NCBI RefSeq assembly: GCF_024704725.1
Contig: NZ_JALIQS010000001.1
Span: forward strand, 930,001 to 994,000
From: Shinella sp. CPCC 101442
GTDB taxonomy: Bacteria; Pseudomonadota; Alphaproteobacteria; Rhizobiales; Rhizobiaceae
Length of the DNA stretch: 64,000 nucleotides
Direction of reading: 5' to 3'
The notes under the pieces were generated by a model. That model worked only from the letters and a program-made list of their open reading frames with translations. It was not told the origin of the DNA and did not search any database. Shown here piece after piece: positions 6,973 through 28,370 of the stretch (its first letter is position 1; the number at the start of each line of letters is the position of its first letter). Position numbers and translations under genes: made by a program.

Positions 6973-7020
6973 TCGCCATCGGCCCAGGCCCGCGCCTCCC
7001 AGTGGGCCAAGGCGCGGCCG

Positions 7021-7043
7021 GAGCCGGGGATCTGCCCCGGCTC
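7021..7043 (+). other. GC-rich hairpin after the binding-protein gene
   Basis: Two perfect nine-base arms (GAGCCGGGG/CCCCGGCTC) enclose a five-base loop between the binding-protein stop and the first permease start. There is no U-tract, so it is more likely a 3'-end stabiliser or partial attenuator than a full terminator. Confidence 0.6.
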
Positions 7044-7077
7044 TGCCGCCGCTCAGTCTGACATCAGGGGAACACCC

Positions 7078-9148: not shown

Positions 9149-9152
9149 GCCG

Positions 9153-10250: not shown

Positions 10251-11235
10251 GATCGTTCTTGAAAACGTGACGAAACGCTTCGGGGATACCGTCGCGCTCG
10301 ACAATGTCTCACTGACCGTGCCCGACGGCTCCTTCGTCGTGCTGCTCGGCCCGACAGGCGCGGGCAAGACGACTACGCTGCGCATGGTTTCGGGCCTCGA
10401 TGCGCCCGACAGCGGCGAGGTTTATATCGGCGGGCGCTCCATGAGGGGGCTCTCGCCGGCCGAGCGCAATGTCGCCATGGTGTTTCAGCAATATTCGCTT
10501 TATCCGCACCTCACCGTTCGCCAGAACCTGGAGTTCCCCCTGAAATCCCCGCTCCTGAAGACGCCGAAAGAGGCGATCGACCGGAAGGTGCGGGAGGTCG
10601 CGGAGGTCCTGCAGATCGCCCATAAGCTGGACAACAAGGCAACGGCGCTTTCGGGCGGCGAGATGCAGCGCGTCTCGATTGGGCGTGCGTTGGTGCGCAA
10701 TCCCGAAATCTTCCTGATGGACGAACCGCTGAGTTCGCTCGACGCGAAGCTCAGGGCGGACCTGCGCATCGAATTGAAGCGCATCCAGGCGAAATCGGGT
10801 GCGACGCTGCTCTATGTCACCCACGACCAGATCGAGGCGATGACCATGGCGACCCATGTCGGCGTGCTCAATGCGGGCAAACTGGTGCAGTTCGGCTCGC
10901 CGCGCGAAGTCTACGAACAGCCCGTCAGCATCTACGCCGCAACCCGCCTCGGCCAGCCGCGCATCAACGTGCTGCCGGCCGATCTTTTCGCCGGCGCCCC
11001 GGCGCGTGCAACGAGCATCGGCCTTCGCCCGGAGCATATCGCGCAAGGCGAGGGGGAGGAGGCGCTGGTCAAGCGCGTCGAGCACCTCGGCGACCAGACA
11101 CGCCTCCACCTCACCTTCAAGCGGCATGACCTGATAACCGTCACCGACGCCCATACCCCGCTTCGCGGTGGCGAGACCATCCGGATCCAACCGTCACGAC
11201 CGCTCTTTTTCGATGCGGCCGGCATGCGCCTGTAG
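10243..11235 (+). CDS. MalK/UgpC-like ABC transporter ATPase, second copy
   Basis: An ATPase of 330 residues. It has Walker A GPTGAGKTTT, Q-loop VFQQYSLYPHL, signature LSGGEMQRVSIGRA, Walker B EIFLMDEPLSSLD and switch VTHDQ, then a short TOBE domain (IGLRPEHI). The start is the ATG at 10243, which overlaps the end of the preceding ATPase gene and has a GGGAG site. An in-frame ATG at 10225 lies inside that gene. It differs from its neighbour in the signature loop and is about 35 residues shorter, so the pair is an old duplication rather than a recent copy. Confidence 0.92.
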   Translation: MAEIVLENVTKRFGDTVALDNVSLTVPDGSFVVLLGPTGAGKTTTLRMVSGLDAPDSGEVYIGGRSMRGLSPAERNVAMVFQQYSLYPHLTVRQNLEFPLKSPLLKTPKEAIDRKVREVAEVLQIAHKLDNKATALSGGEMQRVSIGRALVRNPEIFLMDEPLSSLDAKLRADLRIELKRIQAKSGATLLYVTHDQIEAMTMATHVGVLNAGKLVQFGSPREVYEQPVSIYAATRLGQPRINVLPADLFAGAPARATSIGLRPEHIAQGEGEEALVKRVEHLGDQTRLHLTFKRHDLITVTDAHTPLRGGETIRIQPSRPLFFDAAGMRL

Positions 11236-11346
11236 TGCTGGCCCGCTTGCAACGGACCAGCGCTAAAGCTTTTGTTTTTTCAGCATGATCCTGCCGATTC
11301 CTGTTTCACACCGGTCGGATCACGCATCAGTCTGAGGAGATTTTTC

Positions 11347-12966
11347 ATGGCGCAATTCATCAATCGGCGTGAAGACGTCGTTACCGAGGCGATCGACGGG
11401 GTGCTGGCTCTCTCGGGCGGTACGCTGACCCGTCTCGACGGCTATCCCCATATCAGGGTCGTCCTGCGCAGCGACTGGGACAAGTCCAAGGTGGCGATCG
11501 TCTCGGGCGGCGGCTCTGGCCATGAGCCGGCCCATGTCGGCTTCGTCGGCAAGGGCATGCTGACGGCCGCCGTCTGCGGCGACGTTTTTGCCTCGCCGAG
11601 CGTCGATGCCGTGCTCGCCGGAATTCTTGCGGTAACAGGCCCCGCCGGATGCCTCCTCGTCGTGAAAAACTATACTGGCGACCGGCTGAATTTCGGCCTT
11701 GCCGCGGAGCGGGCGCGGGCTTTCGGCCTCAACGTTTCCATGGTGATTGTCGGCGACGACATCGCGCTGCCCGAGCTGCCGCAGGCGCGCGGCGTCGCCG
11801 GCACGCTCTTCGTGCACAAGATTGCGGGTGCTCTTGCGGAAAAGGGGGCCGACCTCGACACGGTCACCGCCGCCGCCAGACATGTCATCGCCCGCACGCA
11901 CTCCATCGGCATGTCGCTCGACACCTGCCGCGTGCCGGGTTCGCCGAAGGAGGATCGCATTCCCGAAGGCAAGGCCGAACTCGGCCTCGGCATCCATGGC
12001 GAAGCCGGTGTCGAACAGATCGATTTCGCAGGCGCACGCGCCTCCGTTTCGATCATGGTCGACCGGCTGGCCGCCGTCATGGGTGAAGGGCAGCACGTGG
12101 CGCTGATCAACAATCTCGGCGGCGCCTCGGTGGTGGAAATGTCCGTGCTCGCCCATGACCTTCTCGGCTCGTCCATCGGCGCAAAAATCACCCACGCCGT
12201 CGGCCCCGCACCGCTGATGACCTCGCTCGACATGCAGGGTTTCTCCATCTCCGTCCTCTCCGCCGATGCGGCCGAACTGGACCTGCTGAAAGCCCCCGTG
12301 CCGATCGCCGCCTGGCCCGGCGTCTCGGAAATCCGCCCGATCGCTATCGCCGCGCTGCCGGATGGCCTGACCCCGATCACCCCGATGGCCTCCGGCCATG
12401 CCGCGACGCGTGCCTTCGTCATCAATTGCTGCGACGTCCTCATCGCCGCCGAACAGGACCTCAACGCGCTGGACGCCAAATCCGGCGACGGCGACACCGG
12501 CTCGACGCTGGCAGGCGCCGCCCGCGCGCTGATCAACGCCATCGATCGCCTGCCGCTGTCCGATCACACCCAGCTCCTGCGCGCCATCGGCCAGGAGCTT
12601 AGCCAAACTATGGGCGGATCCTCCGGCGTGCTGCTCGCCATCTTCTTCGCGGCGGCCGGCGACGGCGCATCGAGTGGCTTGCCGATGCGCGAGGCGCTCC
12701 GCGCGGGTCTCGCCCGCATGCAGGAAATCGGCGGCGCGCGGGCCGGCGACCGCACGATGGTCGATGCGCTTGCGCCCGCGCTCGAATCCCTCGGCCAGAG
12801 CGTTGCCGCCGCCGCGGCGGCAGCCCGCGAAGGAGCGAATTTCACGGCAACCCTCACCCGCGCAAAGGCCGGGCGCGCAGCCTATATCAACGCCAGACAA
12901 CTCGAAGGGCACATCGATCCGGGCGCCGAGGCCGTGGCCCGGCTCTTCGAACATCTTGCGCGCTGA
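11347..12966 (+). CDS. dihydroxyacetone-kinase-family protein (DhaK-DhaL fusion)
   Basis: An ATP-dependent kinase of small ketoses with both domains in one 539-residue chain. The DhaK domain (about 1-335) has the GSGHEPAH loop and the substrate-binding histidine in GLGIHGEAG (His217). The DhaL domain (about 350-535) has the nucleotide/Mg loop KSGDGDTGS and GGSSGVL. The ATG at 11347 has TGAGGAGA upstream. It follows the polyol-type transporter genes, so it probably phosphorylates the imported compound or its oxidised form. Family members act on dihydroxyacetone, glyceraldehyde or the erythruloses; the sequence does not decide between them. No matching dehydrogenase is in the operon. Confidence 0.9.
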   Translation: MAQFINRREDVVTEAIDGVLALSGGTLTRLDGYPHIRVVLRSDWDKSKVAIVSGGGSGHEPAHVGFVGKGMLTAAVCGDVFASPSVDAVLAGILAVTGPAGCLLVVKNYTGDRLNFGLAAERARAFGLNVSMVIVGDDIALPELPQARGVAGTLFVHKIAGALAEKGADLDTVTAAARHVIARTHSIGMSLDTCRVPGSPKEDRIPEGKAELGLGIHGEAGVEQIDFAGARASVSIMVDRLAAVMGEGQHVALINNLGGASVVEMSVLAHDLLGSSIGAKITHAVGPAPLMTSLDMQGFSISVLSADAAELDLLKAPVPIAAWPGVSEIRPIAIAALPDGLTPITPMASGHAATRAFVINCCDVLIAAEQDLNALDAKSGDGDTGSTLAGAARALINAIDRLPLSDHTQLLRAIGQELSQTMGGSSGVLLAIFFAAAGDGASSGLPMREALRAGLARMQEIGGARAGDRTMVDALAPALESLGQSVAAAAAAAREGANFTATLTRAKAGRAAYINARQLEGHIDPGAEAVARLFEHLAR

Positions 12967-13405: not shown

Positions 13406-13651
13406 GGACTTCTCTCTGGTCTTCATTGTCAGGGTGTCGGCAGGAAGGACACAGTGCGAAGTCAGCGCAAGCGCCTGGCACCCCCGCCTAGAATAGCGAT
13501 TCGGCACCATACGGCAGGGGATAGCAGCCTGCACCTGGATAAATGAGGACGCGACGACGGCAGTGGATCAGGCCTTATAGGCTCTCAATTCGCGGGGTCG
13601 CCGTAGATCTCACCGAAGAATGCTGACCTGTCGTCGTTCCGGTCATGTTGA

Positions 13652-13692
13652 ATACATAACATTGATGTTGACTGATGTGGCATACATAACAT
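13652..13692. repeat. two direct repeats upstream of the peptide-type ABC operon
   Basis: The 11-mer ATACATAACAT occurs at 13652-13662 and 13682-13692, exactly 30 bases apart and 50 to 90 bases before the binding-protein start. The first copy is preceded by ATGTT, which makes an ATGTT/AACAT inverted pair. Same-face spacing suggests cooperative binding by a regulator, perhaps the RpiR-type protein encoded at 20269-21198. The rest of 13406-13742 holds no gene. Confidence 0.5.
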
Positions 13693-13742: not shown

Positions 13743-15290
13743 ATGAACTTTTGGAGCAGGCCCCGCATGCGGGCCATGGGTTTGACATTGCGCGGCGCGA
13801 CCTTCCTGGTTGCCGGACTGATTGCTTTTGAACCCGCCTTGGCGGCCGACGTCATTCGTGTCGTCTCGCCCTACCAGACGACGACCCTGGACCCGATGCG
13901 TTCGGCGGCGGCCGGCAACATCGAAACCTATGGCCAGCTCTATTCGCGCCTTGTTCGGCGCAATTCGGAGACCGGCGTCCTGGAGCCAGGACTGGCCGAG
14001 ACGTGGGAAGTTTCCGGAGACGGCAAGACCTACACGTTCCATCTGCGTGACGCGCAGTTCTCCGACGGTTCGCCGATCACGGCTGCCGACGTGGCCTTCA
14101 GCCTGGAACGCATCCGGGGCGACAAGAAATCGGCTTATCCCGCGCCGCTCAGCTCTGTGGAATCCGTGACCGCCGCTGATCCGAAAACCGTGGTCGTGCA
14201 GCTCAAATCGGCCTTCGCGCCGTTCCTCGGCAACGCCGAAATCTGGAATATGGGCATAGTTTCCAAGGCCGATGTCGAGAAGCGCGGCGAGGAAGCAGCG
14301 TTCGCCACGGTGCCGGTCACATCCGGCCCCTATGAGGTCAAGCAGTGGAAGCCGAACGAAAAGCTCGTTCTCGAACCCAATCCGCACTACTGGCGCAAGG
14401 GCTATCCGAAGTCGGACGCAACCGTCGAGCTGATCGAGATCGCATCGCCTGAAACCCGTATCGCCATGCTGAAGGCGGGCGAGATCGATGTCGTCCGGGC
14501 AGTGCCGTGGGCGCAGATCGACGATCTGAAGACGGTCGAGACGATCGATATGCGGCTCGAACCATCGACCACCATCTACATGACCCTGCTCAACCACAAG
14601 CGTGAACCCTTCTCCAACCTGCAGGCACGGCAGGCCGCAGGCATGGCGATCGACAACGAAGCCATGGCCAAGGCCATCACGCGTGGTTATGCCGAACCGG
14701 CAAACACCACGCTGCCGGGCAGTGTCGATTTCCATGACAAGGACTATCCGGGCATTCCCTACGATCCTGCCAAGGCGAAGGAACTGCTCGCCGAGTCCGG
14801 CATGGCGGGGCACGAAGTAAAAATCCTGGCGACCGCCGACGCGCCGTCCCAGCAGACAGCGCTGCTGATCCAGGCGCAATGGCAGGCGATCGGCCTGAAG
14901 CCCGTCATCGTCAATGTCGACGGTGGTGCCTGGTGGGATGCCACCGGCAAGGGCGACTACGACGCCGCAGCCAACTGGTGGTACAACGAGACACCGGACC
15001 CCGACCTTGCCGTGCGCTGGGCCGTGTGCGGAACCTGCGGCTCGAACTCCTACAACACCTTCTATGCCAATCCGAAGGTGGATGCGCTCGTGGAGGAGGG
15101 CACCAAGGAGGTCGATCAGGCCAAGCGGGCGGAAATCTACAAGGAAATCCAGAAGATCACCACCGACGAGGTTGCACAGGTTCCTCTTTACTACGCGCCG
15201 AATGCGGTCGCGTACGCGAAGCGTCTCGAAGGCCTCAAGCTGACGCCATCGCTGCAATGGACCCTGGAAGAAACGACCATCGGCCAGTGA
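13743..15290 (+). CDS. peptide/nickel-type ABC transporter substrate-binding protein
   Basis: A periplasmic binding protein of family 5 (DppA/OppA type), 515 residues. A twin-basic N-terminus and a hydrophobic stretch end in ALAAD near residue 35. The conserved family segment LEPGLAETWEVSGDGKTYTF is near residue 80. GGGGAGGAG precedes the ATG. It heads an operon with two permeases, a fused ATPase, an amidase, an RpiR regulator and a NylB-like hydrolase. The ligand is therefore probably an amide-linked oligomer or peptide-like compound cut after uptake; this is inference from the context. Confidence 0.92.
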   Translation: MNFWSRPRMRAMGLTLRGATFLVAGLIAFEPALAADVIRVVSPYQTTTLDPMRSAAAGNIETYGQLYSRLVRRNSETGVLEPGLAETWEVSGDGKTYTFHLRDAQFSDGSPITAADVAFSLERIRGDKKSAYPAPLSSVESVTAADPKTVVVQLKSAFAPFLGNAEIWNMGIVSKADVEKRGEEAAFATVPVTSGPYEVKQWKPNEKLVLEPNPHYWRKGYPKSDATVELIEIASPETRIAMLKAGEIDVVRAVPWAQIDDLKTVETIDMRLEPSTTIYMTLLNHKREPFSNLQARQAAGMAIDNEAMAKAITRGYAEPANTTLPGSVDFHDKDYPGIPYDPAKAKELLAESGMAGHEVKILATADAPSQQTALLIQAQWQAIGLKPVIVNVDGGAWWDATGKGDYDAAANWWYNETPDPDLAVRWAVCGTCGSNSYNTFYANPKVDALVEEGTKEVDQAKRAEIYKEIQKITTDEVAQVPLYYAPNAVAYAKRLEGLKLTPSLQWTLEETTIGQ

Positions 15291-15300
15291 GCCGCCTCAA

Positions 15301-15322
15301 GCGCGCCCTGACAGGGGCGCGC
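15301..15322 (+). other. GC-rich hairpin after the binding-protein gene
   Basis: Perfect eight-base arms (GCGCGCCC/GGGCGCGC) surround a six-base loop, starting 11 bases after the binding-protein stop. There is no U-tract. It probably protects the upstream message and lowers permease expression. Confidence 0.6.
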
Positions 15323-15349
15323 CCTTGACGCTCGAACCGGAGAACCGGA

Positions 15350-16288
15350 TTGTCTCTTCTGCAACTTATCGCGCGGCGCCTGCTGCAATTGATCGGCGTT
15401 CTGGCCGGCATCAGCCTCGTGACGTTCCTGCTGGTGCATATGGCGCCCGGCGATCCCGCGCGGCTTCTTGCCGGGGAGAGGGCGAGCGCCGAGACCATTG
15501 CCGCGATCCGCTCGCAATATGGGCTGGACCTGCCGCTCTGGCGGCAGTTTCTGACCTATCTCGTCAATCTGCTTTCGGGTGACATCGGCCAGTCCCTGCG
15601 CTTTCAGCGGCCGGTCAGCCAGCTCATCGAACAGTTCATGTGGCCGACGCTGTTCCTCACCGTCTATGTCATCTGCCTCGCCATCCCGCCGACGGTCGCG
15701 CTCGCCATCCTCGGCGCCCGCCGGCCCGGCGGCATCGCCGACCAGATCATCCGGCTGGTCGGCATTGCGGGCCTCACCATCCCGGTGTTCTGGCTGGGTA
15801 TCATGATGTCGCGTTTCTTCGGCGTCAGCCTCGGCTGGTTCCCCGTTTCGGGCTACGGCACGGGCTTCACGGGGCATCTCCATCACCTGTTCCTGCCGGC
15901 GATGTCGACGGCTATCTGGCTGGTGCCGGTTCTGACGCAGAGCCTGCGCGCCGCCCTCATCGAGAAGACGACGGCCGACTTCGTGACCGCCGCCCGGGCA
16001 CAGGGCGCGACGGAACGGCAGATTTTCTGGCAAACCATGTTGCCGAACGCCGTGCTGCCGACGCTCAACCTGCTCGGTGTCATGGTGGCCTTCATGATCG
16101 GCGGCGCCGTCATCGTCGAAACCGTCTATGCGGTACCGGGGCTCGGCACGCTGATGGTCAACGCGTTGCTCGGGCGCGACTACTACGTCGTGCAGGGGCT
16201 GACGCTGGTCTTTGCGGTCTCGACGGTCCTGATCACGCTGCTGGTGGATTTGCTGACCGCCTTCATCGACCCGCGCGTCCGGTTCTGA
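15350..16288 (+). CDS. peptide-type ABC transporter permease (DppB type)
   Basis: An inner-membrane permease of 312 residues with about six membrane segments. The start is a TTG at 15350, with GGAG nine bases upstream; the encoded MSLLQLIARRLLQLIGVLAGIS is the usual DppB-type beginning. The N-terminal VTFLLVHMAPGDPA motif and the late IDPRVRF end are characteristic. The EAA-like loop TADFVTAARAQGATERQIF is near residue 205. It pairs with the DppC-type permease that follows after 11 bases. Confidence 0.93.
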   Translation: MSLLQLIARRLLQLIGVLAGISLVTFLLVHMAPGDPARLLAGERASAETIAAIRSQYGLDLPLWRQFLTYLVNLLSGDIGQSLRFQRPVSQLIEQFMWPTLFLTVYVICLAIPPTVALAILGARRPGGIADQIIRLVGIAGLTIPVFWLGIMMSRFFGVSLGWFPVSGYGTGFTGHLHHLFLPAMSTAIWLVPVLTQSLRAALIEKTTADFVTAARAQGATERQIFWQTMLPNAVLPTLNLLGVMVAFMIGGAVIVETVYAVPGLGTLMVNALLGRDYYVVQGLTLVFAVSTVLITLLVDLLTAFIDPRVRF

Positions 16289-16299
16289 GGAAATCGCAC

Positions 16300-17151
16300 A
16301 TGGCTGACACCCCCGTTCTGGCGCAGATCGCGCCGCCCGCCCGCAGAATCACCCCTACCATGCCAGTTGCGCTCGCCATCCTGTTCGGATGGCTGATGGT
16401 GGCGCTGACGGCTCCGTTGATCGCGCCCTATGATCCTGATGCCATCGACATCGTCAACATGCTCTCGCCGCCGGGCGCGGCCCACTGGTTCGGCACGGAC
16501 CAGGTCGGGCGCGACGTCTTTTCGCGTGTTCTCTACGCAAGCCGTGTCGATCTGCTGCTGTGTTTCGCCGGCGTGCTGCCGCCCCTTCTGATCGGCACGA
16601 CCATCGGGCTGCTGAGCGGCTACTTCGGTGGTGTCGTCGACAATGTGTTCATGCGCATCTACGACTTGACCGTCGCATTTCCCTTCTTCGTGCTGGTGCT
16701 GGCCATTGTCGGCGTGCTCGGGCCGGGGCTTCTCAACTTCATCCTCGCGCTGGCGCTCGTCGGCTGGGTCAGCTATGCGCGGCTGGTGCGGGCGCAGGTG
16801 CTGACGATCCGTGAAAGCGAGTATATCCAGGCGGCCAAATGCCTCGGCTACCCGCCGAGGGCCATTCTCAGCCATCATGTGCTGCCGAACGCCGTCGGGC
16901 CTGTCATCGCTTATGCGGTCAGCGACGCGGTGCTCGTCATGCTGGCGGGCGCAAGCTTCGGCTTCCTCGGCCTCGGCGCACAACCGCCGCTCGCCGAATG
17001 GGGCGTCATGATCGCCGACGGGCAGGCATTCGTGCAGCAGGCCTGGTGGATATGCCTGTTTCCGGGTCTCGCCGCGATTTCGCTCGGCCTCGGTTTCGCC
17101 TTGCTTGGTGATGGGCTCGGACAGATACAGCGCAGGGGAGTTACGGCATGA
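16300..17151 (+). CDS. peptide-type ABC transporter permease (DppC type)
   Basis: The partner permease, 283 residues. The HWFGTDQVGRDVFSRVLYASR motif near residue 62 is diagnostic of DppC/OppC proteins. The coupling loop SEYIQAAKCLGYPPRAI is near residue 170. About six membrane segments are present. The ATG at 16300 follows the DppB-type stop by 11 bases. Its own stop overlaps the ATPase start by four bases (ATGA). Confidence 0.94.
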   Translation: MADTPVLAQIAPPARRITPTMPVALAILFGWLMVALTAPLIAPYDPDAIDIVNMLSPPGAAHWFGTDQVGRDVFSRVLYASRVDLLLCFAGVLPPLLIGTTIGLLSGYFGGVVDNVFMRIYDLTVAFPFFVLVLAIVGVLGPGLLNFILALALVGWVSYARLVRAQVLTIRESEYIQAAKCLGYPPRAILSHHVLPNAVGPVIAYAVSDAVLVMLAGASFGFLGLGAQPPLAEWGVMIADGQAFVQQAWWICLFPGLAAISLGLGFALLGDGLGQIQRRGVTA

Positions 17152-18815
17152 ACGGCCTGGAAACCGGCAAGCCGCCGCTGCTCGAAGTCAAGGACCTGTC
17201 CGTCAGCTTCGGCGATTTCGAAGCGGTCAAGACTGTCTCGTTCACGCTCCAACCGGGCGAAATCCTCGGTATCGTCGGCGAAAGCGGTTCGGGCAAGTCC
17301 GTGACCTGCCGCGCCGTGATGCGATTGCTGACCGGTGCGGCCCGGGCGCAGGGCAAGGTGGCGCTCGATGGGCAGGATCTGCTGGCGCTCGGCGAGGAGG
17401 AACTCTGCGCCATTCGCGGCCGCGATATCGGCATGATCTTCCAGAACCCGGCCTCGCATCTCGATCCGCTGCGCCGTATCGGCCAGCAGGTCGCGGCCCC
17501 GATGATCCGCCATCTCGGCCTCGGCAGGCGCGAGGGCCTGCGGCGCGCAGTCAAGCTGTTGGAGGACGTCGGCATCCGCGAGCCTGAAAAGCGCGCGCGC
17601 TCCTATCCGCACGAGTTCTCGGGCGGCATGAAACAGCGGGCGATGATCGCCGCCGCCATCGGCTGCCAGCCGAAACTGTTGATCGCAGACGAGCCGACGA
17701 CGGCCCTCGACGTCACCGTTCAGGCCCGCATCCTGCAACTGCTCAAGGAGCTCAACCGCAAGACCGGGCTGGCGATGATCCTCATTTCGCACGATCTCGG
17801 CGTCGTCGCGGATATCTGCTCGCATGTGGTGGTGATGCGCAATGGCGAGGTGGTGGAGCAGGGGCCGATCGATGACGTCATCAACCGGCCGCGCCACGCC
17901 TATACCAAACTGTTGATCGACTCCCAGCCGGGCCGCAAGACCTATGGCACGGCCGATCGCCCGGATCGGGGCGCGCCGCTGCTCGAAGTCGAAAACCTCT
18001 CGGTGTCCTTTTCCTCCGGCAAGGGACTGTTCGGGGGACTGGCGGGAAACAGCAATTCCTTCCGCGCCCTCGATGGCGTCGATCTCACGATCAACGCGGG
18101 CGAAACGGTTGGCATCGTCGGCGAAAGCGGCTCCGGCAAGAGCACGCTCGCCCGCTCGATCATCCGCCTCAATACGCCGAGCGGCGGAGCGATCCGCCTG
18201 GACGGGCAGGATGTCGGGGCGCTTGGCGGCGAGGCGCTGACGGCCTTCCGCCGCCGCGTGCAGATGGTGTTCCAGAATCCCTACGACTCGCTCAATCCAC
18301 GCCTGACGATTGCCGAGGCGGTCGCCGAGCCGATCTGGCGACATGGCCTTGCCGATCGAAAAGCGGCGCAGAAAGAGGCCGATGCCCTGCTGGAAATGGT
18401 GGAATTGCCGCGCAGCCTGCGGGATCGCAAACCGCGCCAGCTCTCCGGCGGGCAGTGCCAGCGCGTCGGCCTTGCGCGGGCGCTGGCACTGAAGCCGCAA
18501 TTGCTCATCGCGGATGAAATCACCTCGGCGCTCGATGTGACGACACAGGCACAGATCCTGGAACTGCTGGTGAAGCTCCAGCGCGAGCGGTCGCTGACGC
18601 TGCTCTACATCTCGCACGATCTTTCCGTGGTCAGCAGTTTCTGCCAGCGCGTCTATGTCTTCAAGGCTGGGCGCATCGTGGAGGAAGGCGTGGCGCGGCA
18701 GGTTCTGTCCACGCCACAGGATCCCTATACGCAGGCGCTGGTCGGTTCTCTGGCCAGGCTGCCGTCTTTACAGACAACCCCCAGTGCAGAACCGGTGTCG
18801 ATCCATGCGACTTGA
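17148..18815 (+). CDS. fused peptide-type ABC transporter ATPase (DppD-DppF in one chain)
   Basis: A tandem ATPase of 555 residues that combines the two subunits usually encoded separately. The first half has Walker [11 protein letters not shown] near residue 48 and signature [14 protein letters not shown]. The second half, from about residue 275, has Walker [14 protein letters not shown], signature [14 protein letters not shown] and Walker [13 protein letters not shown]. Both halves are intact. Such fusions (GsiA-like) are common in alphaproteobacteria. It overlaps the preceding permease by four bases and the following amidase by eleven. Confidence 0.95.
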
Positions 18816-20256
18816 CGAATATACAGCCCATGACGGAACCAGCCTCGCCCGCCTGCTGGCAAAGCGCGAGGTTACGCCAGGCGAGCTTGGCCATTGCCTT
18901 AAAGAGGCCGTTGCGGCGGTGAACCCCACGCTGAATGCTGTCATCGAACTCTATCCCGATGCACTGGAAGGCCTGTCGGAGACCGCCGCCGCCGGACCGT
19001 TCGGTGGCATTCCCACCTTGACCAAGGACTTTCCGATCGAAGCCGGGCGGCCAGCGGAATTCGGCAGTCGCCTAGCGCAGGGTTTTCGCGCCGCCCAGGA
19101 TGCCGTCTACTGGACACGTCTGCGCAAGGGTGGATTGGTCAACGTCGGACGTACGACCAGTTCCGAGTTCGGTGTGCCGGCGACCACGGAATCGCCGCTC
19201 TACGGCGCGACCCGCAATCCGTGGAACCCGGAGCGCGGCGTTGCCGGATCGAGCGGCGGCGCGGCTGCTGCCGTCGCGGCGGGCATCGTGCCGTTCGCGC
19301 AGGGCAGCGACGGCGGTGGATCGATCCGCAATCCGGCCGCGTTCTGCGGTCTGATCGGCCTGAAACCTTCGCGCGGCCGGGTCACCGGCTCTCCGAACGC
19401 GAACGCGCCGCTTCTGGGGCTGGCAACGGCGTTCATGCTCACCCGTTCCGTGCGCGACACCGCCGCGCTGCTTGACTTGTGCCATGGTCCGGATGCCGGC
19501 GACGGATATGAAATCGCGCCGCCGGTGGGCATCTATCTCGATGCCATGCAGCGAACACCCAAGGGGCTCCGGATAGCCCTGTGCCTACGCTCATGGTCCG
19601 GCGTCCAGATCGACCCGGACGTGGCGGCGGCGACAAGATCGGCGGCGGAACGGGTTGCGTCTCTTGGCCACCATATCGATGAAGTCTCACCGGACTTCGA
19701 CTATCCCGCCTTTCTTCATGCCCAGAAAGTCATCTGGGCCGCGGACGCCGCCGCAAACATGCCGGCGATGGCCCAGCGCATGAACCGAAAGCTCGAGGAG
19801 GCACTCGGCGCAAGCGTCTACGCACTGTACCGACGGGGCTTGGGCGTGAGCGGCGCGCAACTCATCGAGGCGCTTGCCGTCTATGACCGGACGACGCGGC
19901 AGGTCGGCCGTTTCATGACCGGATACGATCTGTTGCTGACGCCCACCAGCGCAATCCTGCCGGAACCGATCGGCACCTTCGATCCCAATCGTGCGGGCAT
20001 CGATGCGGACGGCGTGTTCAATGATCTTGCGCCGAAGGAGACCTTCACCGCATTGTTCAACGCCACGGGGCAACCCGCGATCTCCCTGCCGCTTGGACGC
20101 AGCCGGGATGGTCTGCCCATCGGTATCCAGCTTGTTGCCCGTTTCGGACGGGAGGACCTGCTGCTTGCGGCGGCGCGGCAAATCGAGGAAGAGGTGGAAA
20201 GCGCGCCCGGCATCTGGGGGCAGGGGCGTCCGGCCATCCATGCAGGCAATTTCTAG
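18805..20256 (+). CDS. NylA-like amidase (amidase-signature family)
   Basis: A cytoplasmic amide hydrolase of 483 residues. The Ser-cisSer-Lys triad is complete: Lys74 (TLTKD), cis-Ser149 (GSSGG) and nucleophile Ser173 (GGSIR). The 24-residue spacing between the serines equals that recalled for NylA (150/174). Shared landmarks with NylA, the 6-aminohexanoate cyclic-dimer hydrolase, include GATRNPWN and GPF-GI-P-TKD. The ATG at 18805 lies inside the end of the ATPase gene, so the enzyme is translationally tied to the transporter. Amidases are broad, and glutamyl-tRNA amidotransferase subunit A is excluded by context. The natural substrate is unknown; an imported amide or cyclic dimer is the inference. 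Confidence 0.88.
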   Translation: MRLDEYTAHDGTSLARLLAKREVTPGELGHCLKEAVAAVNPTLNAVIELYPDALEGLSETAAAGPFGGIPTLTKDFPIEAGRPAEFGSRLAQGFRAAQDAVYWTRLRKGGLVNVGRTTSSEFGVPATTESPLYGATRNPWNPERGVAGSSGGAAAAVAAGIVPFAQGSDGGGSIRNPAAFCGLIGLKPSRGRVTGSPNANAPLLGLATAFMLTRSVRDTAALLDLCHGPDAGDGYEIAPPVGIYLDAMQRTPKGLRIALCLRSWSGVQIDPDVAAATRSAAERVASLGHHIDEVSPDFDYPAFLHAQKVIWAADAAANMPAMAQRMNRKLEEALGASVYALYRRGLGVSGAQLIEALAVYDRTTRQVGRFMTGYDLLLTPTSAILPEPIGTFDPNRAGIDADGVFNDLAPKETFTALFNATGQPAISLPLGRSRDGLPIGIQLVARFGREDLLLAAARQIEEEVESAPGIWGQGRPAIHAGNF

Positions 20257-20268
20257 GAGGCTGTCACT

Positions 20269-21198
20269 GTGGCGAAAGCGCGAAACGGCAAGGATGCCAA
20301 GGGACCGAACGGCGCTGAGGAGAAGATCGACATCGACGCGCTCCTGCGCGCCCGCATGGCCGATTTTTCGCCCTCGGAGCAGAACCTAGCAGCCTACATC
20401 CTGGACAACATCCAGATGCTGCCCTTCGAGACCGGCAGCAGCATTGCGCAGGCCGTGGGCGTCAGCGAAATGACGGTCACACGGTTCGTTCGCGGCCTCG
20501 GCTTCGAGAACCTGCGCGACCTCAAGAACCGGTTGCGCGTGGCGGTAACGGAGAAGGACAGCGAAGTCGACGACTATATGGCTCGTTTCCAGATGCGCGA
20601 GGGCCCGCAGCAGGTGCTGCAGGAAAGCCTGCGGCTGGAACTCGACGCCATCGTGAAGGCCTATGCCTTGACGACCACCGATGTGTGGGACGAGGCGGCG
20701 ACCCTGCTGGTGAAGGCGCGCACCATCTATGTCGTCGGTTTCCAGGCGTCGAAAGGCCTTGCGCTGGATTTCGCCAGCCGCCTGCTATGGGCCCGCTCCA
20801 ACGTGATCTTCATCGACAACGCCTCGGGCACGTTCGGTGAGATCATCAACGCGGATCCGAAGCAGAGCGTCGTCGTTCTGGTGGACACGGCCTCCTATGC
20901 CACGCGTGGTATCAAGCTGGTGGAGATGCTGAAGTCGATGGACATGCCAATGGTCATCGTCACCGACAAGTTCAGCCATTGGGCCTTTGCCTATACACGC
21001 TTCGTCTTCGAGGCCCATACGCATGTGAAGACCTTCTGGGATTCGACGGCGAGCCTGAGCGTCGTGCTCAACCTGATGATCGATGCGGTAGCCACCAAGC
21101 TCGGCCCGAAGGCCAAGCGCAACTTTTCCATGATGAGCGACATGGGCAGCCTGTTCGGAGAGTTCGTCGGCGGCAGCTATCTTCGCCGCAACGACTGA
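20269..21198 (+). CDS. RpiR/MurR-family transcriptional regulator
   Basis: A regulator of 309 residues. An RpiR-type helix-turn-helix spans about residues 30-105 (LAAYILDNIQMLPFETGSSI, then VSEMTVTRFVRGLGF). A SIS sugar-isomerase-like effector domain spans about 140-270. The start is GTG at 20269 with TAGGAGG upstream. SIS domains usually bind phosphosugars, which is odd for an operon of peptide-type transport and amide hydrolysis. The effector may instead be another phosphorylated or amino compound. The repeats at 13652-13692 are its candidate site. Confidence 0.9.
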   Translation: MAKARNGKDAKGPNGAEEKIDIDALLRARMADFSPSEQNLAAYILDNIQMLPFETGSSIAQAVGVSEMTVTRFVRGLGFENLRDLKNRLRVAVTEKDSEVDDYMARFQMREGPQQVLQESLRLELDAIVKAYALTTTDVWDEAATLLVKARTIYVVGFQASKGLALDFASRLLWARSNVIFIDNASGTFGEIINADPKQSVVVLVDTASYATRGIKLVEMLKSMDMPMVIVTDKFSHWAFAYTRFVFEAHTHVKTFWDSTASLSVVLNLMIDAVATKLGPKAKRNFSMMSDMGSLFGEFVGGSYLRRND

Positions 21199-21236
21199 TC
21201 GAGGCGTCGCTCCAAATCGTCAAACGAGAGTAAACC

Positions 21237-22427
21237 ATGACCAGCATTCCGCCATTCCGTGATCCGGCCGCTCCGGGCAACCCCGTCATCCCGCGACAGG
21301 ATTGGGACCGCGCGCCCTGGAACCGCTGGACCTTCCAGCATGTCCGGGACATGGTGCCGACCACGCAGGTCTGGCGCGGGCAGGGGCCGGCGAGCCTGTT
21401 GCCGAGCAACGTGCAGGATATCGACGCCATTCCCTTCGAGGCGGACGGATGGCACGGCACCATCGGCGGCTTTCTCGAAACGAGCTACGCCGATGGCCTG
21501 CTCGTGCTCCATCGCGGCACGGTCGTCGCCGAGCGCTACCTGAACGGCATGACCCCGCACACGCAGCACCTGTCGCAGTCGGTCGCCAAGTCGATCGTCG
21601 GCACACTCGCCGGCATCTTGATCGGACGGGGCCTGGTCGATCCGACCGCCCCGGTCACGCACTACCTGCCGGAACTGGAAGCGACGGCCTATCACGGCGC
21701 GACGGTCCAGCACGTACTGGATATGACCAGCGGCGTGCTTTTCGACGAGACCTATACCACGCTCGATTCCCACATGGCGCAGCTGGATGCCGCCTGCGGC
21801 TGGAAGGAGCGCTGGAACCCGAACTGGCCGGCGCATGTCTGGGGCCTGATCCTGTCGCTGCAGACGCTGGAGTGCCCGCATGGCGCCTCCTTCCGCTATC
21901 GCTCGATCGAGACGGATGTCCTGTCCTTCGTGCTGCAGCGCGCCGCCGCAACACCGCTTGCGGAGCTTGTCAGCCGCGAATTGTGGGCACCCATGGGGGC
22001 GGAGGAGGACGCCTATTTCACCGTCGATCCGGCAGGCTACGCCCTGGGCGACGGCGGCTTCAATGCCACCCTGCGTGACTATGGCCGTTTTGCCTTGCTG
22101 CATCTTCGCGGCGGCGAGATCGACGGCCGGCGCGTGGTTCCGGCCGAATGGATCGCCGGGACGCGCTTCGGCGCTGACCCGACGCTGTTCGGCGGCATCT
22201 ATCACGATGTCCTGCCCGAAGGCGCCTATCACAACCAGTTCTGGATCGAGGACAGCACACGCCGCGCGTATATGGCGCGCGGCGTTTTCGGGCAGCTTGT
22301 CTATATCGACCCGGAAGCGGATTTCGCCGCGGTCATCCTGTCGAGCTGGCCCGAATTCGTCAGCACGGCGCGGACACGGACGGCGCTTGCGGCCGTCAGG
22401 GCAATTCGTCTGGCCTTGTCCGTCTAG
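21237..22427 (+). CDS. NylB-like serine hydrolase (class C beta-lactamase fold)
   Basis: A hydrolase of 396 residues resembling 6-aminohexanoate-dimer hydrolase NylB. Compared with NylB from memory, the catalytic Ser112, Lys115 and Tyr215 correspond to Ser115, Lys118 (SVAKS) and Tyr221 (FRYRS). The substrate-contact Tyr170 and Asp181 correspond to Tyr173 and Asp184, while Asn266 corresponds to Asp272. The N-terminal WNRWTF and C-terminal SSWPE segments also match. No signal peptide is seen, so the enzyme is cytoplasmic. It closes the peptide-type ABC operon, 38 bases after the RpiR gene. Many related serine hydrolases are esterases, so amidase activity is not proven. Confidence 0.85.
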   Translation: MTSIPPFRDPAAPGNPVIPRQDWDRAPWNRWTFQHVRDMVPTTQVWRGQGPASLLPSNVQDIDAIPFEADGWHGTIGGFLETSYADGLLVLHRGTVVAERYLNGMTPHTQHLSQSVAKSIVGTLAGILIGRGLVDPTAPVTHYLPELEATAYHGATVQHVLDMTSGVLFDETYTTLDSHMAQLDAACGWKERWNPNWPAHVWGLILSLQTLECPHGASFRYRSIETDVLSFVLQRAAATPLAELVSRELWAPMGAEEDAYFTVDPAGYALGDGGFNATLRDYGRFALLHLRGGEIDGRRVVPAEWIAGTRFGADPTLFGGIYHDVLPEGAYHNQFWIEDSTRRAYMARGVFGQLVYIDPEADFAAVILSSWPEFVSTARTRTALAAVRAIRLALSV

Positions 22428-22478
22428 ACGCGATGGACATGCCGACGCATCCCTGACCCCATGATCATGACGGGCGGC

Positions 22479-23954
22479 CTAGATGCCGCCCATGCAGAGA
22501 TACTTCATCTCCAGATAATCCTCCAAACCGTGTCTGGAGCCCTCGCGCCCCATGCCCGATTGCTTGACGCCGCCGAAGGGGGCGGCTTCGGAGGACATGC
22601 GGCCCGTATTGATGCCGACCATGCCATATTCCAGCGCTTCGGCGACCCGCCAGACGCGGGAGAGGTTGGAGGCGTAGAAATAGGCAGCAAGCCCGTAGAT
22701 CGTGTCGTTGGCCTCGCGCACCACCTGGTCGGCATCCGTAAAGCGGATGATGGGGGCGAGCGGCCCGAAGGTCTCTTCCTGTGCGATGCGCATGTCGCGG
22801 GCGATCCCGGTGAGCACGGTGGGCGCGAAGAAGGTGCCCGTGCCATCGATCCTCCTTCCGCCGCAATGGATGCTACCGCCCCGTTCGACCGCATCGGCGA
22901 CATGCGCCTCGATCTTGGCGAGCGCCCGCGTGTCGATCAGCGGGCCGATCGCCACATCAGGGTCGAACCCGTCACCGACGCTAAGCGTCTTGACGCGTGC
23001 GGTGAATTTTTCGGCGAACGCGTCATGCACGCCCGCCTGCACGTAAAGCCGGTTCGCCGAAACGCAGGTCTGGCCGGCATTGCGGAACTTTGCCTGGATG
23101 GCGCCGTCGACGGCGGCATCGACATCGGCATCGTCGAAGACGATGAAGGGGGCGTTGCCGCCAAGCTCCAGGCTGAGCTTCTTCACCTGATCGGAACACT
23201 GCCGCATGAGCAGGCGGCCGACTTCCGTCGAGCCGGTGAAGCTGATCTTGCGCACCTTGGGATTCGTGCAGAGCTCCCGCCCGACAGCGTCTCCCTCCGA
23301 AGCATAGACGAGGTTCACCACGCCGGCCGGGAAACCGGCTTTTTCCGCAAGCGCAAACATGGCGCCGGCCACCAGCGGCGTCTGCTCCGCCGGCTTCAGC
23401 ACGACCGTACAGCCGGCCGCCAGCGCCGGAGAAATTTTTCGTGCGACCATCGAGGCTGGAAAATTCCAGGGCGTGATGGCGCCGACCACGCCGATCGGCT
23501 GTTTGATGACGATCATGCGCCGGTCGCGCGAGGGCGCCGGGATGGTCTCGCCATAGATGCGGTTGGCCTCCTCCGCATACCATTGCAGATAGGCCGCCGC
23601 ATGCGAGACCTCGGATTTCGCCTCGGCCAGCGGCTTGCCCATCTCGGCCGTCAGGATGGCAGCAAGGTCGTCCGTATGCCGCACGATCAACTGGTGCCAG
23701 CGCCACAGCGTATCGGACCGTTCGCGCGCCGTGCGGGCCGCCCACTCGGTCTGCGCCTCGGCGGCGCGGTCGATGGCGGTTCGTGTCTCCGCAACCCCCA
23801 TATCCGGGATTTCTGCAAGAAGCTCGCCGGTCGCAGGATTGAAGACCTCGAACGTCGCGCCGCCCGCTGGTAGGCCAAGCCATGCCGGGTCGGCAATCGT
23901 TTCGAACAGATCCCGGTTCTCCAGGCGGCGAATGAGATTTTGCGTCAGGGCCAC
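22479..23954 (-). CDS. gabD: succinate-semialdehyde dehydrogenase-like aldehyde dehydrogenase
   Basis: An NAD(P)-dependent aldehyde dehydrogenase of 491 residues closest to GabD. The general base Glu263 (LELGGNAPF) and nucleophile Cys297 (RNAGQTCVSANR) are in place, as is the cofactor motif ITPWNFPASMVARK. The start is GTG at 23954 with GGAGG eight bases upstream. It converges on the NylB-like gene with only 51 bases between stops. Oxidation of succinic, glutaric or adipic semialdehyde would fit the end of omega-amino acid breakdown. That link to the neighbouring amidases is suggestive only, and no aminotransferase is present. Confidence 0.88.
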   Translation of the reverse strand: MALTQNLIRRLENRDLFETIADPAWLGLPAGGATFEVFNPATGELLAEIPDMGVAETRTAIDRAAEAQTEWAARTARERSDTLWRWHQLIVRHTDDLAAILTAEMGKPLAEAKSEVSHAAAYLQWYAEEANRIYGETIPAPSRDRRMIVIKQPIGVVGAITPWNFPASMVARKISPALAAGCTVVLKPAEQTPLVAGAMFALAEKAGFPAGVVNLVYASEGDAVGRELCTNPKVRKISFTGSTEVGRLLMRQCSDQVKKLSLELGGNAPFIVFDDADVDAAVDGAIQAKFRNAGQTCVSANRLYVQAGVHDAFAEKFTARVKTLSVGDGFDPDVAIGPLIDTRALAKIEAHVADAVERGGSIHCGGRRIDGTGTFFAPTVLTGIARDMRIAQEETFGPLAPIIRFTDADQVVREANDTIYGLAAYFYASNLSRVWRVAEALEYGMVGINTGRMSSEAAPFGGVKQSGMGREGSRHGLEDYLEMKYLCMGGI

Positions 23955-26190: not shown

Positions 26191-28191
26191 TCAGGCGGTA
26201 CCGCCAACGATGGCATAGGCGGCGGCACCCTCTGCGCAAGCGATCACGATATGCCCATAGGGGTTTCGCCATTCGCTGTGGACATGGGTGTTGTCTTCCA
26301 TATCCAGGCTCGCATCGATCTGCGTGCCCTCCTGCTGAAACACGACAGGCGCGCCGTTCACCGTCAACCAGAGCAACCGGCTTTGGCTTTGCACCTGTAT
26401 CGACAGGCGCTGGCCTCCATGGCCGTCGGGGGCAATCGACAGATTCATCACCGGGTCGGTCGCGTCCGGACGGTTGGTTCCGGTTCGGTCTGAAAGATCC
26501 GGGAGTTCGGGCGTTCGGGTTGGTGGCTGGCGATAGGTGCCTGTCTGCTCGAAGGCGCAGGCATAGGCGAGCAGCGCCGTATCGTCCCAGGCCCGGCCGG
26601 CAAAGGTCAGTCCCGCCGGCATGCCGATATCCGCCAGCATCCCCATCGGCACGGTCACCGTCGGAATACCCAGATGCCGGATCGCCAGATTGCCGTTGGC
26701 GACCCAGGTGCCGTTGCGCCAGGCGAGATCGGCGGAGACGGGGTTCATGTCCGCATCGGCCGGACCGATATCGGCTACGGCCGGGAAGATCACCGCATCG
26801 AGCCCCAGCCGGTCCATCCAGGATTCGAGATCGATGCGTCGGGTTTCCTCGAGCCCTCGAAGCCCGTCGGCAAGGCCCGGAATATCGTGAAACGAAGCGA
26901 TGGGCTGGTCGCGCAGGCGGGCGGGATACTCGGCGATGCGATCGTCGAACCCATGGTAGCGGTCGGGCAGGCTACCGCCCGGCGCGGGGAAGATGCGTTT
27001 CCCATCGACATCCGCAAGCCGGTGCAGGGTGGGGTCGGCATTGGTCGCCAGAAAATCGTCCCAGGCCCATGCCGAGAGATCCACGATCTCGCGGTGAAGA
27101 TAGTCGGCGTCGACCAGGCCGCGTGTCGCGATGGTTGGTGCGCCAGGCCGGTCTCCCTCGTAATTGCTGACAACGGGGAAATCGGTGATCACGACCTCTG
27201 CCCCTGCGGCCTCGAGTGCTTCCCGCGCCGCGGCGCAAAGCGCGATCATGGAGGCGCGGGTTTCGATGCGCTGGCCCGTCGGACCTCCGATCCCCACGTT
27301 TTCGCCGGTTCCCGCTTCCGGGTCGGCGTTGATATACATCGCTGGCAGGGCGAAGCGCTTGCCTGCAAGGCTGGCCGTCGCGGCGACGCCGACATAGGAC
27401 TGCGGCCGCGAAGCAGAGGCCTTTGGGATGGAAATCCACGTCTGACGGCGCCAGAGGTCGCCACGCGTATCGGGATCGTCGGCCACGATGATGTCCAGCA
27501 GCTCCAGCATGTCCGCCATCGAACGGCTGTGCGGCACCACGACGTCCATGGTCGGCACGAGCGGCCAGTTGCCGCGCACGGAAATGACGCCACGGCTCGG
27601 CGTATAGGCGCAGAGCCCGTTGTTGGCTGCGGGCGCGCGCCCGCTCGACCATGTTTCCTCGCCGAGACCGAAGGCTGCTAAACTCGCGGCCGTCGCTGTT
27701 CCCGACCCGTTCGAGGAACCGGAACCGAAGGCGGCAGTCAACCAGTCGGCATTGTAGGGGGACTCCGCGCGGCCATAGACACCGCGCTGCATCCCGCCAT
27801 TGGCCATCGGAGGCATGTTCGTCAGCCCGATCAACACAGCGCCCGCGGCCCTTAGACGAGAAATCGCAAAGGCGTCCTCCGTCGCAATGAGGTCGGCGAA
27901 AGCGGGCGAGCCCGACGCGACGCTCAGCCCTTTCACCTTGTAGCTGTCCTTGGCGGCATAGGGGATGCCGTCGAGGGGCCCGAGACTTTCGCCCCGCGCG
28001 CGCCGCAGGTCCGAAGCGCGCGCCTCGGTGAACATATCGGGATTGAGCACCGGGACGGCGTTGAGGGTGATACCATGCCGGTCGTAGTGGGCAATGCGGT
28101 TCAAATAGGCCGCGACCAGGCCGACGCTGGTTGTGTCACCTGCCTGGAGCGCATCGCGCAGCTTTTCAATCGACGCCTCGACAACCTTCAT
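26191..28191 (-). CDS. amidase-signature protein with C-terminal extension
   Basis: A 666-residue protein. The amidase domain covers about residues 5-545 with the triad Lys81 (AAKDS), cis-Ser159 (GSGSSNG) and Ser183 (WSSGR). The usual DxGGS sequence before the nucleophile is changed to ETWSS, which marks a divergent subgroup. About 120 extra residues follow, rich in beta strands (LSIQVQSQSRLLWLTV), perhaps a small binding domain. The ATG at 28191 has GGGAGGG upstream; the reading frame continues to 28407 without such a site and into the cupin gene. Palindromic half-sites lie about 110 bases upstream. The substrate is unknown. Confidence 0.85.
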   Translation of the reverse strand: MKVVEASIEKLRDALQAGDTTSVGLVAAYLNRIAHYDRHGITLNAVPVLNPDMFTEARASDLRRARGESLGPLDGIPYAAKDSYKVKGLSVASGSPAFADLIATEDAFAISRLRAAGAVLIGLTNMPPMANGGMQRGVYGRAESPYNADWLTAAFGSGSSNGSGTATAASLAAFGLGEETWSSGRAPAANNGLCAYTPSRGVISVRGNWPLVPTMDVVVPHSRSMADMLELLDIIVADDPDTRGDLWRRQTWISIPKASASRPQSYVGVAATASLAGKRFALPAMYINADPEAGTGENVGIGGPTGQRIETRASMIALCAAAREALEAAGAEVVITDFPVVSNYEGDRPGAPTIATRGLVDADYLHREIVDLSAWAWDDFLATNADPTLHRLADVDGKRIFPAPGGSLPDRYHGFDDRIAEYPARLRDQPIASFHDIPGLADGLRGLEETRRIDLESWMDRLGLDAVIFPAVADIGPADADMNPVSADLAWRNGTWVANGNLAIRHLGIPTVTVPMGMLADIGMPAGLTFAGRAWDDTALLAYACAFEQTGTYRQPPTRTPELPDLSDRTGTNRPDATDPVMNLSIAPDGHGGQRLSIQVQSQSRLLWLTVNGAPVVFQQEGTQIDASLDMEDNTHVHSEWRNPYGHIVIACAEGAAAYAIVGGTA

Positions 28192-28300
28192 CGATGCCCT
28201 CCCGCACGAACTATGTTTGGCCGAGTTCTGCGCAAGGAAGCGACGATGGCTCTCGGCAATGCTGCCCCTTCGTTCTAACCATCGGTTTTTTGGCGGGCAA

Positions 28301-28326
28301 TGTCCCATATGGGACAGGGGTGTCCC
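28301..28326. promoter_or_regulatory. tandem palindromic half-sites upstream of the amidase
   Basis: A perfect 16-base palindrome (TGTCCC-ATAT-GGGACA) at 28301-28316 is followed directly by a third half-site. Positions 28311-28326 then form a second palindrome around GGGG. The half-sites repeat every ten bases, one helical turn. This looks like a multi-dimer operator in the amidase promoter region. The binding protein is not known. Confidence 0.55.
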
Positions 28327-28370
28327 CCGCGTCCAGGCAAGCTTGCCTTCTGCCGCTCGTTCAACGTTCT

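What the first reader, a model, noticed from the sequence alone, without database searches (positions are those of the whole stretch)
13743..23954. NylA-like and NylB-like hydrolases in one operon with a peptide-type ABC transporter
The operon joins uptake (13743-18815), an amidase with NylA-like landmarks (18805-20256), an RpiR regulator and a serine hydrolase that keeps the NylB residues. From memory of NylB, Ser112, Lys115, Tyr170, Asp181 and Tyr215 match Ser115, Lys118, Tyr173, Asp184 and Tyr221. Asp181 is one of the changes that give NylB its dimer-hydrolase activity, so its presence in a chromosome-style operon is notable. A semialdehyde dehydrogenase converges on it. Together this looks like a pathway for importing and cutting a cyclic or linear amide oligomer, perhaps the natural source of nylon-oligomer activity. 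An omega-aminotransferase is missing.
Basis: partly seen in the sequence, partly recalled or inferred. Interest (0 to 1): 0.75.

Follow-up and report, generated by a model that had tools for sequence, protein, structure and literature searches.

The report
Natural amide uptake-and-hydrolysis operon
Root-associated bacteria share a compact gene set that probably imports a small natural amide and cuts it with relatives of the nylon-oligomer enzymes, suggesting that those enzymes came from an old natural pathway rather than arising with nylon.

Summary
The window (genus Shinella) has a tight operon: AapF-like binding protein, two permeases, fused ATPase, amidase, RpiR-type regulator and NylB-like hydrolase. 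The hydrolase lies outside the NylB clade.

Asp181 is no mark of nylon: it is D in 120 of 120 listed close relatives and in 112 of 114 listed natural relatives of NylB itself. NylB' Gly181/His266 is the derived state.

The module is real: transporter and NylB-like gene stay together in 7 of 7 genomes and 24 of 24 plasmid records, and a promoter repeat occurs in 19 of 20 copies with the regulator and 0 of 5 without. The semialdehyde dehydrogenase is a chance-level neighbour.

Substrate is inferred only. Polyamine-type transporters beside related hydrolases, an ethanolamide-binding SBP relative, and a linked decarboxylase/ATP-grasp/C45 cassette point to amine, guanidine or GABA-family amides; peptidase-linked distant copies point to unusual peptides. 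Nylon oligomers are unlikely.

The parts
13645..13662 (+). operator-like repeat 1, ATGTTGAATACATAACAT
   Evidence: combined pattern in 19 of 20 copies with the regulator gene, 0 of 5 without; with box 2 the only two matches in the genome, though the backwards control pattern also gave two
13668..13673 (+). probable -35 hexamer TTGACT between the two repeats
   Evidence: sequence; TTGAC or TTGAT at this place in the 20 regulator-containing copies, read by eye from the alignment
13675..13692 (+). operator-like repeat 2, ATGTGGCATACATAACAT, just after the -35 hexamer
13743..15290 (+). solute-binding protein, SBP_bac_5, nearest solved relative AapF
15350..16288 (+). ABC permease 1
16300..17151 (+). 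ABC permease 2
   Evidence: start
17148..18815 (+). fused two-domain ABC ATPase
   Evidence: two ABC_tran stretches
18805..20256 (+). amidase-signature hydrolase, K74-S149-S173, W311 at NylA Cys316
20269..21198 (+). RpiR/MurR-type regulator (HTH_6 + SIS)
21237..22427 (+). NylB-like serine hydrolase, S115-K118-Y221, Y173, D184, D272
22479..23954 (-). succinate-semialdehyde dehydrogenase; convergent neighbour, not part of the conserved module

Best explanation
The operon is a self-contained, RpiR-controlled module that imports a small natural amide through a peptide-type ABC transporter and cleaves it in the cytoplasm with an amidase-signature enzyme and a NylB-like serine hydrolase, as carbon and nitrogen source. 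The substrate is probably a conjugate with a basic end, from the agmatine, putrescine, ethanolamine or GABA neighbourhood of metabolism: the acids D184 and D272 would hold the amine or guanidine while S115-K118-Y221 attacks the amide, and the amidase would take a second amide bond or the other half. Shown by computation: module, families, conserved catalytic residues, promoter repeat, recurrence. Inferred: control by the RpiR protein, cytoplasmic cleavage, order of steps, role of D184/D272, substrate class.
For: Tight operon. Transporter-first test: SBP at 68% identity or more in 7 of 199 family genomes (the window's own included), NylB-like gene on the same contig within 6 kb in 7 of 7; 24 of 24 plasmid records with SBP at 77% or more, compared by eye (in two of them the NylB-like match is broken or partial). 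Amidase in the fetched flanks of 25 of 72 query-clade loci against 2.1 expected: 12 of 22 Opp-type and 10 of 20 Pot-type loci, L014 counted in both (base rate). Promoter repeat goes with the regulator gene. Substrate class: nearest solved SBP relative AapF (295 bits, next 178; best other match in this genome 148 bits) was solved with HEHEAA, a small amide described as an ethanolamine derivative; 20 of 72 loci have a Pot-type transporter (PotA above the TIGR01187 cut-off in the one example tested); Hist_deacetyl proteins in 18 of 72 against 0.9 expected; agmatinase genes near NylB-like genes in two plasmids. Decarboxylase/ATP-grasp/C45 cassette upstream of the module on R. leguminosarum and S. 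meliloti plasmids; its ATP-grasp and C45 counterparts in this genome stand with agmatinase, 5-guanidino-2-oxopentanoate decarboxylase and aldehyde dehydrogenase. In engineered P. putida, linear Ahx2 and Ahx3 enter through the ABC system PP_0411-4, in a paper that ties polyamine uptake to such import (PMC11879879, passages).
Against: AapF is only 35% identical, and a close homologue of it in another species does not bind HEHEAA (PMC10134790, passages). Distant copies of the transporter sit with DmpA/BapA-type and D-aminopeptidase genes, which points to unusual peptides. The cassette link is indirect: 7 of 24 plasmid records with the module lack C45, 6 of the 7 module genomes in the family sample lack the ATP-grasp gene, and 5 genomes have a 53-57% ATP-grasp without the module. 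The hydrolase is also found without this transporter: 22 of 199 genomes have it at E 1e-120 or better, 15 of them without the SBP. Agmatinase-like genes occur in only 1 of 72 loci and class III aminotransferases are not clearly enriched (5 of 72, 3.2 expected). Expected numbers come from one genome and the loci are related, so counts are not independent; the loci were chosen by the NylB-like protein.
Confidence: 0.45

Rival explanations
1. The module uses short peptides with D-, beta- or omega-amino acids; amidase, NylB-like hydrolase and DmpA-type peptidases are interchangeable peptide-bond cutters behind one peptide importer.
For: Paracoccus and Sulfitobacter copies of the transporter+RpiR unit (SBP 57% and 51%) lie beside S58 peptidases whose best PDB match is the aminopeptidase 1b65, then beta-peptidyl aminopeptidase; the Sulfitobacter copy also beside M55, C45 and M42 peptidase genes. 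The transporter family is peptide-type.
Against: No NylB-like gene is annotated beside those two copies, and the three more distant copies fetched from genomes carry an amidase (44-58%) with none of these peptidases detected in the stretch held. The Pot-type, agmatinase and arginine-operon links are not explained.
Confidence: 0.27
2. Uptake and degradation of a plant or bacterial signal amide (HEHEAA-like effector or N-acyl-homoserine lactone).
For: SBP nearest to AapF, importer protein for the plant effector HEHEAA. The AS amidase QsdB, grouped with NylA, cuts N-acyl-homoserine lactones (PMC3676327, passages). One plasmid copy (L120) has LuxR-type and acyl-homoserine-lactone synthase genes 7-9 kb downstream.
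Against: Purified NylA and LibA did not inactivate these lactones; the regulator in the operon is RpiR-type, and no proline iminopeptidase gene is annotated beside the module in the plasmid copies read.
Confidence: 0.1
3. It degrades nylon-type or other cyclic/linear amide oligomers.
For: Best PDB sequence matches are NylB and NylA; opp genes lie in the same region as nylB and nylC in Arthrobacter and Agromyces (PMC7019077, passages).
Against: N266 is D272, C316 is W311; the hydrolase lies outside the NylB clade; the module is spread over rhizobial chromosomes and plasmids.
Confidence: 0.06
4. The hydrolase is a beta-lactamase or esterase (PIB-1-like) in a mixed operon.
Against: The class C models are far below cut-off (best 29.2 bits, cut-off 850); the recurrent partners are amidases and transporters.
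Confidence: 0.07

Closest known systems
NylB, 6-aminohexanoate-dimer hydrolase (Arthrobacter, EC 3.5.1.46)
   Different: 35% identity, N266 replaced by D, separate clade
NylA, 6-aminohexanoate-cyclic-dimer hydrolase
   Same: Amidase-signature family, K72/S150/S174, best PDB sequence match
   Different: 38% identity; substrate residue C316 is W, N125 is V
AapF, HEHEAA-binding protein of the Pseudomonas Pip system
   Same: Nearest solved SBP by sequence, 35% identity over 474 positions
   Different: No pip gene or LuxR solo in the operon; it carries amidase, NylB-like hydrolase and RpiR
PIB-1 (8rlj) and 4gb7
   Different: 31% and 26% identity; PIB-1 is called a carbapenem-hydrolyzing enzyme (title in the reference list of PMC13269358)
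Arthrobacter pOAD2 / Agromyces nyl regions
   Same: nylB with opp transporter genes in one region (PMC7019077, passages)
   Different: Those carry nylC; no RpiR is mentioned in the passages seen; that DNA was not examined here

Membership tests
NylB (EC 3.5.1.46) | Ser112-X-X-Lys115 and Tyr215 | tested here: met
   S115, K118, Y221
NylB (EC 3.5.1.46) | Tyr170 and Asp181 | tested here: met
   Y173, D184; gapless between them
NylB (EC 3.5.1.46) | Asn266 | tested here: not met
   D272; in P0001-P0120 D 107, N 12, E 1
NylB (EC 3.5.1.46) | falls within the NylB clade | tested here: not met
   trees put the query outside the actinobacterial NylB group; the tool warned of long branches in both
NylB (EC 3.5.1.46) | hydrolysis of 6-aminohexanoate dimer | not testable with these tools
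   -
NylA (EC 3.5.2.12) | Lys-Ser-Ser triad of the amidase signature | tested here: met
   K74, S149, S173; 120 of 120 listed relatives
NylA (EC 3.5.2.12) | Cys316 for substrate binding | tested here: not met
   W311; W in 120 of 120 listed proteins P0121-P0240
NylA (EC 3.5.2.12) | hydrolysis of the cyclic dimer | not testable with these tools
   -
AapF-type binding protein | closer to AapF than to other solved SBP_bac_5 proteins | tested here: met
   295.5 against 178.4 bits among PDB chains
AapF-type binding protein | HEHEAA-contacting residues | not tested
   structure paper not read
Class C beta-lactamase / PIB-1 | NCBIfam class C models above cut-off | tested here: not met
   best 29.2 bits against 850
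Class C beta-lactamase / PIB-1 | PIB-1-like fold | tested here: met
Class C beta-lactamase / PIB-1 | carbapenem hydrolysis | not testable with these tools
   -
RpiR/MurR regulator | HTH_6 plus SIS domain | tested here: met
   39.2 and 27.1 bits, cut-offs 28.3 and 25; SIS only just

The most novel reading that the evidence does not exclude
The module is the reclaim half of an opine-like cycle: the linked OKR-fold decarboxylase, ATP-grasp ligase and C45 enzyme make an amide of agmatine, putrescine or guanidinobutyrate, an exporter releases it, and this operon takes it back and cuts it. The NylA/NylB-type chemistry is thus an old rhizosphere pathway, and NylB with Asp181/Asn266 was ready before nylon existed; NylB' is a decayed copy.
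Probability: 0.15. Interest if true: 0.85.

Novelty: new variant of a known kind. Interest (0 to 1): 0.6.

Why it matters
NylB/NylB' is (recalled) a widely told example of a new enzyme function arising within decades. Here 111 of 114 listed natural relatives of NylB carry both activity-giving residues, including all 74 that are less than 78% identical to it; such divergence should be far older than nylon (inference), and the NylB'-type chain nests among them. The story then becomes recruitment of an existing amide hydrolase plus a decayed duplicate. The conserved rhizobial operon offers a concrete natural system in which the physiological substrate of this enzyme class can be found.

Tried and rejected
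SSADH as a pathway gene: rejected at chance level, though Mesorhizobium AR02 has an SSADH directly upstream of its NylB-like gene and Rhizobium CIAT894 one about 6.5 kb downstream. Asp181 as a nylon mark: rejected. Pantothenase: considered because I recalled an Ochrobactrum pantothenase as NylB-like; the one paper looked at says the Pseudomonas protein is unidentified (passages), so the lead was dropped. NylC link through S58 peptidases: that NylC belongs there is recalled; phmmer gave only the aminopeptidase 1b65, beta-peptidyl aminopeptidase and D-aminopeptidases. A search for 7KZ8/AapF gave unrelated papers; another found the papers used. The PNAS paper on HEHEAA is not held. Genomic context of actinobacterial NylB relatives could not be fetched. 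Contexts were read but are single cases. In counting residues around NylB I dropped 6 of the 120 listed rows (P0241-P0246), taken as engineered chains from their mutant states. L022 fails the promoter pattern although a weaker version is visible by eye. The whole-genome control for the 18-mer, the pattern read backwards, also gave 2 matches, so that count alone proves nothing; the window shuffles gave none. After re-checking the calls I lowered the best explanation from 0.50 to 0.45 and the novel case from 0.18 to 0.15, and raised the peptide rival from 0.25 to 0.27, because searches show the cassette and the hydrolase often apart from the module.
Full report
OBSERVATION. The operon is present as described. 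Seven genes run from 13743 to 22427 with gaps of 59, 11, -4, -11, 12 and 38 nt. Base composition is that of the window (0.640 against 0.631). The genome is assigned to Shinella because a genome marked 'same genus' (G075) has the NylB-like gene on a contig of 510722 bases, the length of the Shinella sp. WSJ-2 contig fetched by name.

ASP181. D184 is D in 120 of 120 listed close relatives (of 2446 found), in 32 of 33 locus proteins of 60% identity or more, and in 40 of 50 of 40-60%; below 40% the position is R in 22 of 23. Among the 120 listed relatives of NylB (of 1472 found), six are engineered chains (P0241-P0246). Of the other 114, 112 have D181 and 113 have N266; 111 have both. All 74 with less than 78% identity have both. 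The one chain with the NylB' states (P0246, G181/H266, engineered at other sites) sits in a four-row group with 96% support whose other three rows are D181/N266; the seven-row group around it (99%) holds one other G181 protein, P0248. So D181 and N266 are ancestral in that group and the NylB' states derived. That 2zm0 is a mutant carrying G181D, H266N and D370Y is in its title; that its background is a NylB'-derived hybrid is recalled. I saw no statement of this polarity in the passages read.

NOT NYLB ITSELF. In the tree the NylB row joins (93%) a clade of paralogues with R at position 181, while the query sits in a separate 77-row clade; NylB's first BLAST hits are in the R181 clade. The tool warns of long branches. 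This genome has five full-length NylB-like matches, the query included, and two partial ones. One paralogue (G000:C1:796572-797702) lies beside a Pot-type ABC transporter (L092).

MODULE. I took L006-L077 as the query clade (72 loci; L073 is too short and is not in the tree). Of these, 20 hold the SBP at 60% identity or more; 12 of the 20 have the amidase and 15 the regulator. Starting from the transporter, 7 of 199 family genomes, the window's own included, hold the SBP at 68% or more, and all 7 have the NylB-like gene on the same contig within 6 kb. So do 24 of 24 plasmid records with SBP at 77% or more (compared by eye); in CP090118 the NylB-like match is in two pieces and in CP090553 it covers 68% of the query. 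The reverse does not hold: 22 of 199 genomes have a NylB-like gene at E 1e-120 or better, 15 of them without the SBP, and S. medicae and S. meliloti plasmids have split or partial NylB-like matches and no SBP match in the list. Flanks differ between genera; the R. leguminosarum copies share theirs. R. leguminosarum CB782 lacks the amidase. Among more distant copies, G269, G361 and G235 (SBP 45-65%) have an amidase (44-58%) but no NylB-like gene in the stretch held (14962, 7947 and 18501 bases). Paracoccus and Sulfitobacter copies keep RpiR and sit with S58 peptidase genes, the latter also with M55, C45 and M42 genes. The transporter-amidase pairing may therefore be older than the NylB link.

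PROMOTER. Two near-identical 18-mers at 13645 and 13675 flank a TTGACT. Window shuffles give no such match; they are the only two matches in the genome, but the control pattern read backwards also gave two. The combined pattern is found in 19 of 20 copies that have the regulator gene and in 0 of 5 without it. The pattern was fitted on these sequences, and the five copies without it are also the more diverged ones (SBP 61-67%); controls gave 2 of 10000 shuffles and 9 of 4000 random stretches.

NEIGHBOURS AND CHANCE. In the 72 loci an amidase is found in 25 (2.1 expected), a Hist_deacetyl protein in 18 (0.9), a class III aminotransferase in 5 (3.2), an aldehyde dehydrogenase in 8 (8.1) and an agmatinase in 1 (no expectation computed) (by BLAST to a few representatives). 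Expectations use this genome's own gene numbers as I counted them from the matches (10, 4, 15 and about 40). Twenty-two loci have an Opp-type and 20 a Pot-type transporter; L014 is in both, its Pot-type genes at 32-44%. Amidases: 12 of 22 Opp-type, 9 of the 19 other Pot-type, 4 of 31 with neither. So the amidase pairing is real across two transporter types, and the SSADH is a chance-level neighbour.

SUBSTRATE CLASS. Four lines point to amine, guanidine or GABA-family amides. (1) The SBP is nearest to AapF (295 bits against 178 for the next PDB chain and 148 for the next match in its own genome). AapF was solved with HEHEAA (PMC11168924 figure legend; PMC10134790 and PMC7301841 passages). (2) Pot-type transporters beside NylB-like genes. 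In engineered P. putida, Ahx2 and Ahx3 enter through PP_0411-4, and the paper connects polyamine uptake systems with such import (PMC11879879 passages). (3) Agmatinase genes near NylB-like genes in Pseudomonas MPC6 and Shinella HZN7 (the latter about 8 kb away, beyond another transporter), and an arginase-family gene, below the agmatinase cut-off, beside the module in Shinella WSC3-e. (4) A cassette of OKR-fold decarboxylase, ATP-grasp protein and C45 enzyme lies just upstream of the SBP on R. leguminosarum and S. meliloti plasmids. C45 homologues of 62% or more occur in 20 plasmid records, 17 of which also hold the module's SBP (by eye). For one more, Shinella zoogloeoides UPHL-collab-1, the module is on another plasmid of the strain; for Roseateles XES5 an 88% amidase relative is listed for the strain; for Sinorhizobium RAC02 none was seen. 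Conversely 7 of 24 module records lack C45, 6 of 7 module genomes of the family sample lack the ATP-grasp gene, and five genomes have a 53-57% ATP-grasp without the module. In the window's own genome the ATP-grasp and C45 counterparts stand with agmatinase, 5-guanidino-2-oxopentanoate decarboxylase, aldehyde dehydrogenase, D-amino acid dehydrogenase and alanine racemase (names from the annotated Shinella zoogloeoides record). The chain from this to the module's substrate is inference. What the ATP-grasp protein joins is unknown; its PDB matches are weak (best E 2.6e-4), and the C45 enzyme has none.

VERDICT. It is best described as a natural small-amide import and hydrolysis module with NylA- and NylB-family enzymes, not a nylon pathway. 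The most useful outcome may be the reversed polarity of Asp181/Asn266.

Noticed in passing
P0241-P0360 (relatives of NylB): D181 and N266 are the ancestral state in the listed natural actinobacterial relatives of NylB; two natural proteins (P0248, P0253) have G181 with N266 and one (P0275) D181 with Y266.
   Followed up: yes
L086, L088, L114, L115, L116, L117, L120 and L013, upstream of the SBP gene: Cassette of OKR-fold decarboxylase, ATP-grasp protein and C45 enzyme (decarboxylase not seen in L013 and L117, whose fetched upstream ends too early); an ABC ATP-binding gene lies convergent downstream in L013, L086, L114, L115, L116 and L120. Looks like a small unstudied biosynthetic set.
   Followed up: partly
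L122 (G000:C1:490500-510400): Own-genome operon: amino acid permease, agmatinase, 5-guanidino-2-oxopentanoate decarboxylase, aldehyde dehydrogenase, ATP-grasp, C45, D-amino acid dehydrogenase, alanine racemase, RidA.
   Followed up: partly
26191-28407: A second amidase in the window, matching NF005127 at 1005 bits (cut-off 575).
   Followed up: no
5638-12966: ABC transporter genes (SBP_bac_8, permease, ATPases) followed by a Dak1/Dak2 kinase gene.
   Followed up: no
L068: Record titled Oceanobacillus sp. HTM 045 carries a Pot-type/NylB/amidase cluster at 66.8% G+C; probably a mislabelled or mixed assembly.
   Followed up: partly
L048, L050, L053, L056-L059, L063: Pot-type transporter, Amidohydro_3, Hist_deacetyl and two NylB-like genes in one cluster in Mesorhizobium and relatives.
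   Followed up: partly
L027, L029, L034, L052, L060: NylB-like genes with class III aminotransferase, MOSC/ferredoxin oxidoreductase and siderophore-interacting protein genes, and in all but L034 a carnitine-dehydrogenase-like 3HCDH gene.
   Followed up: no
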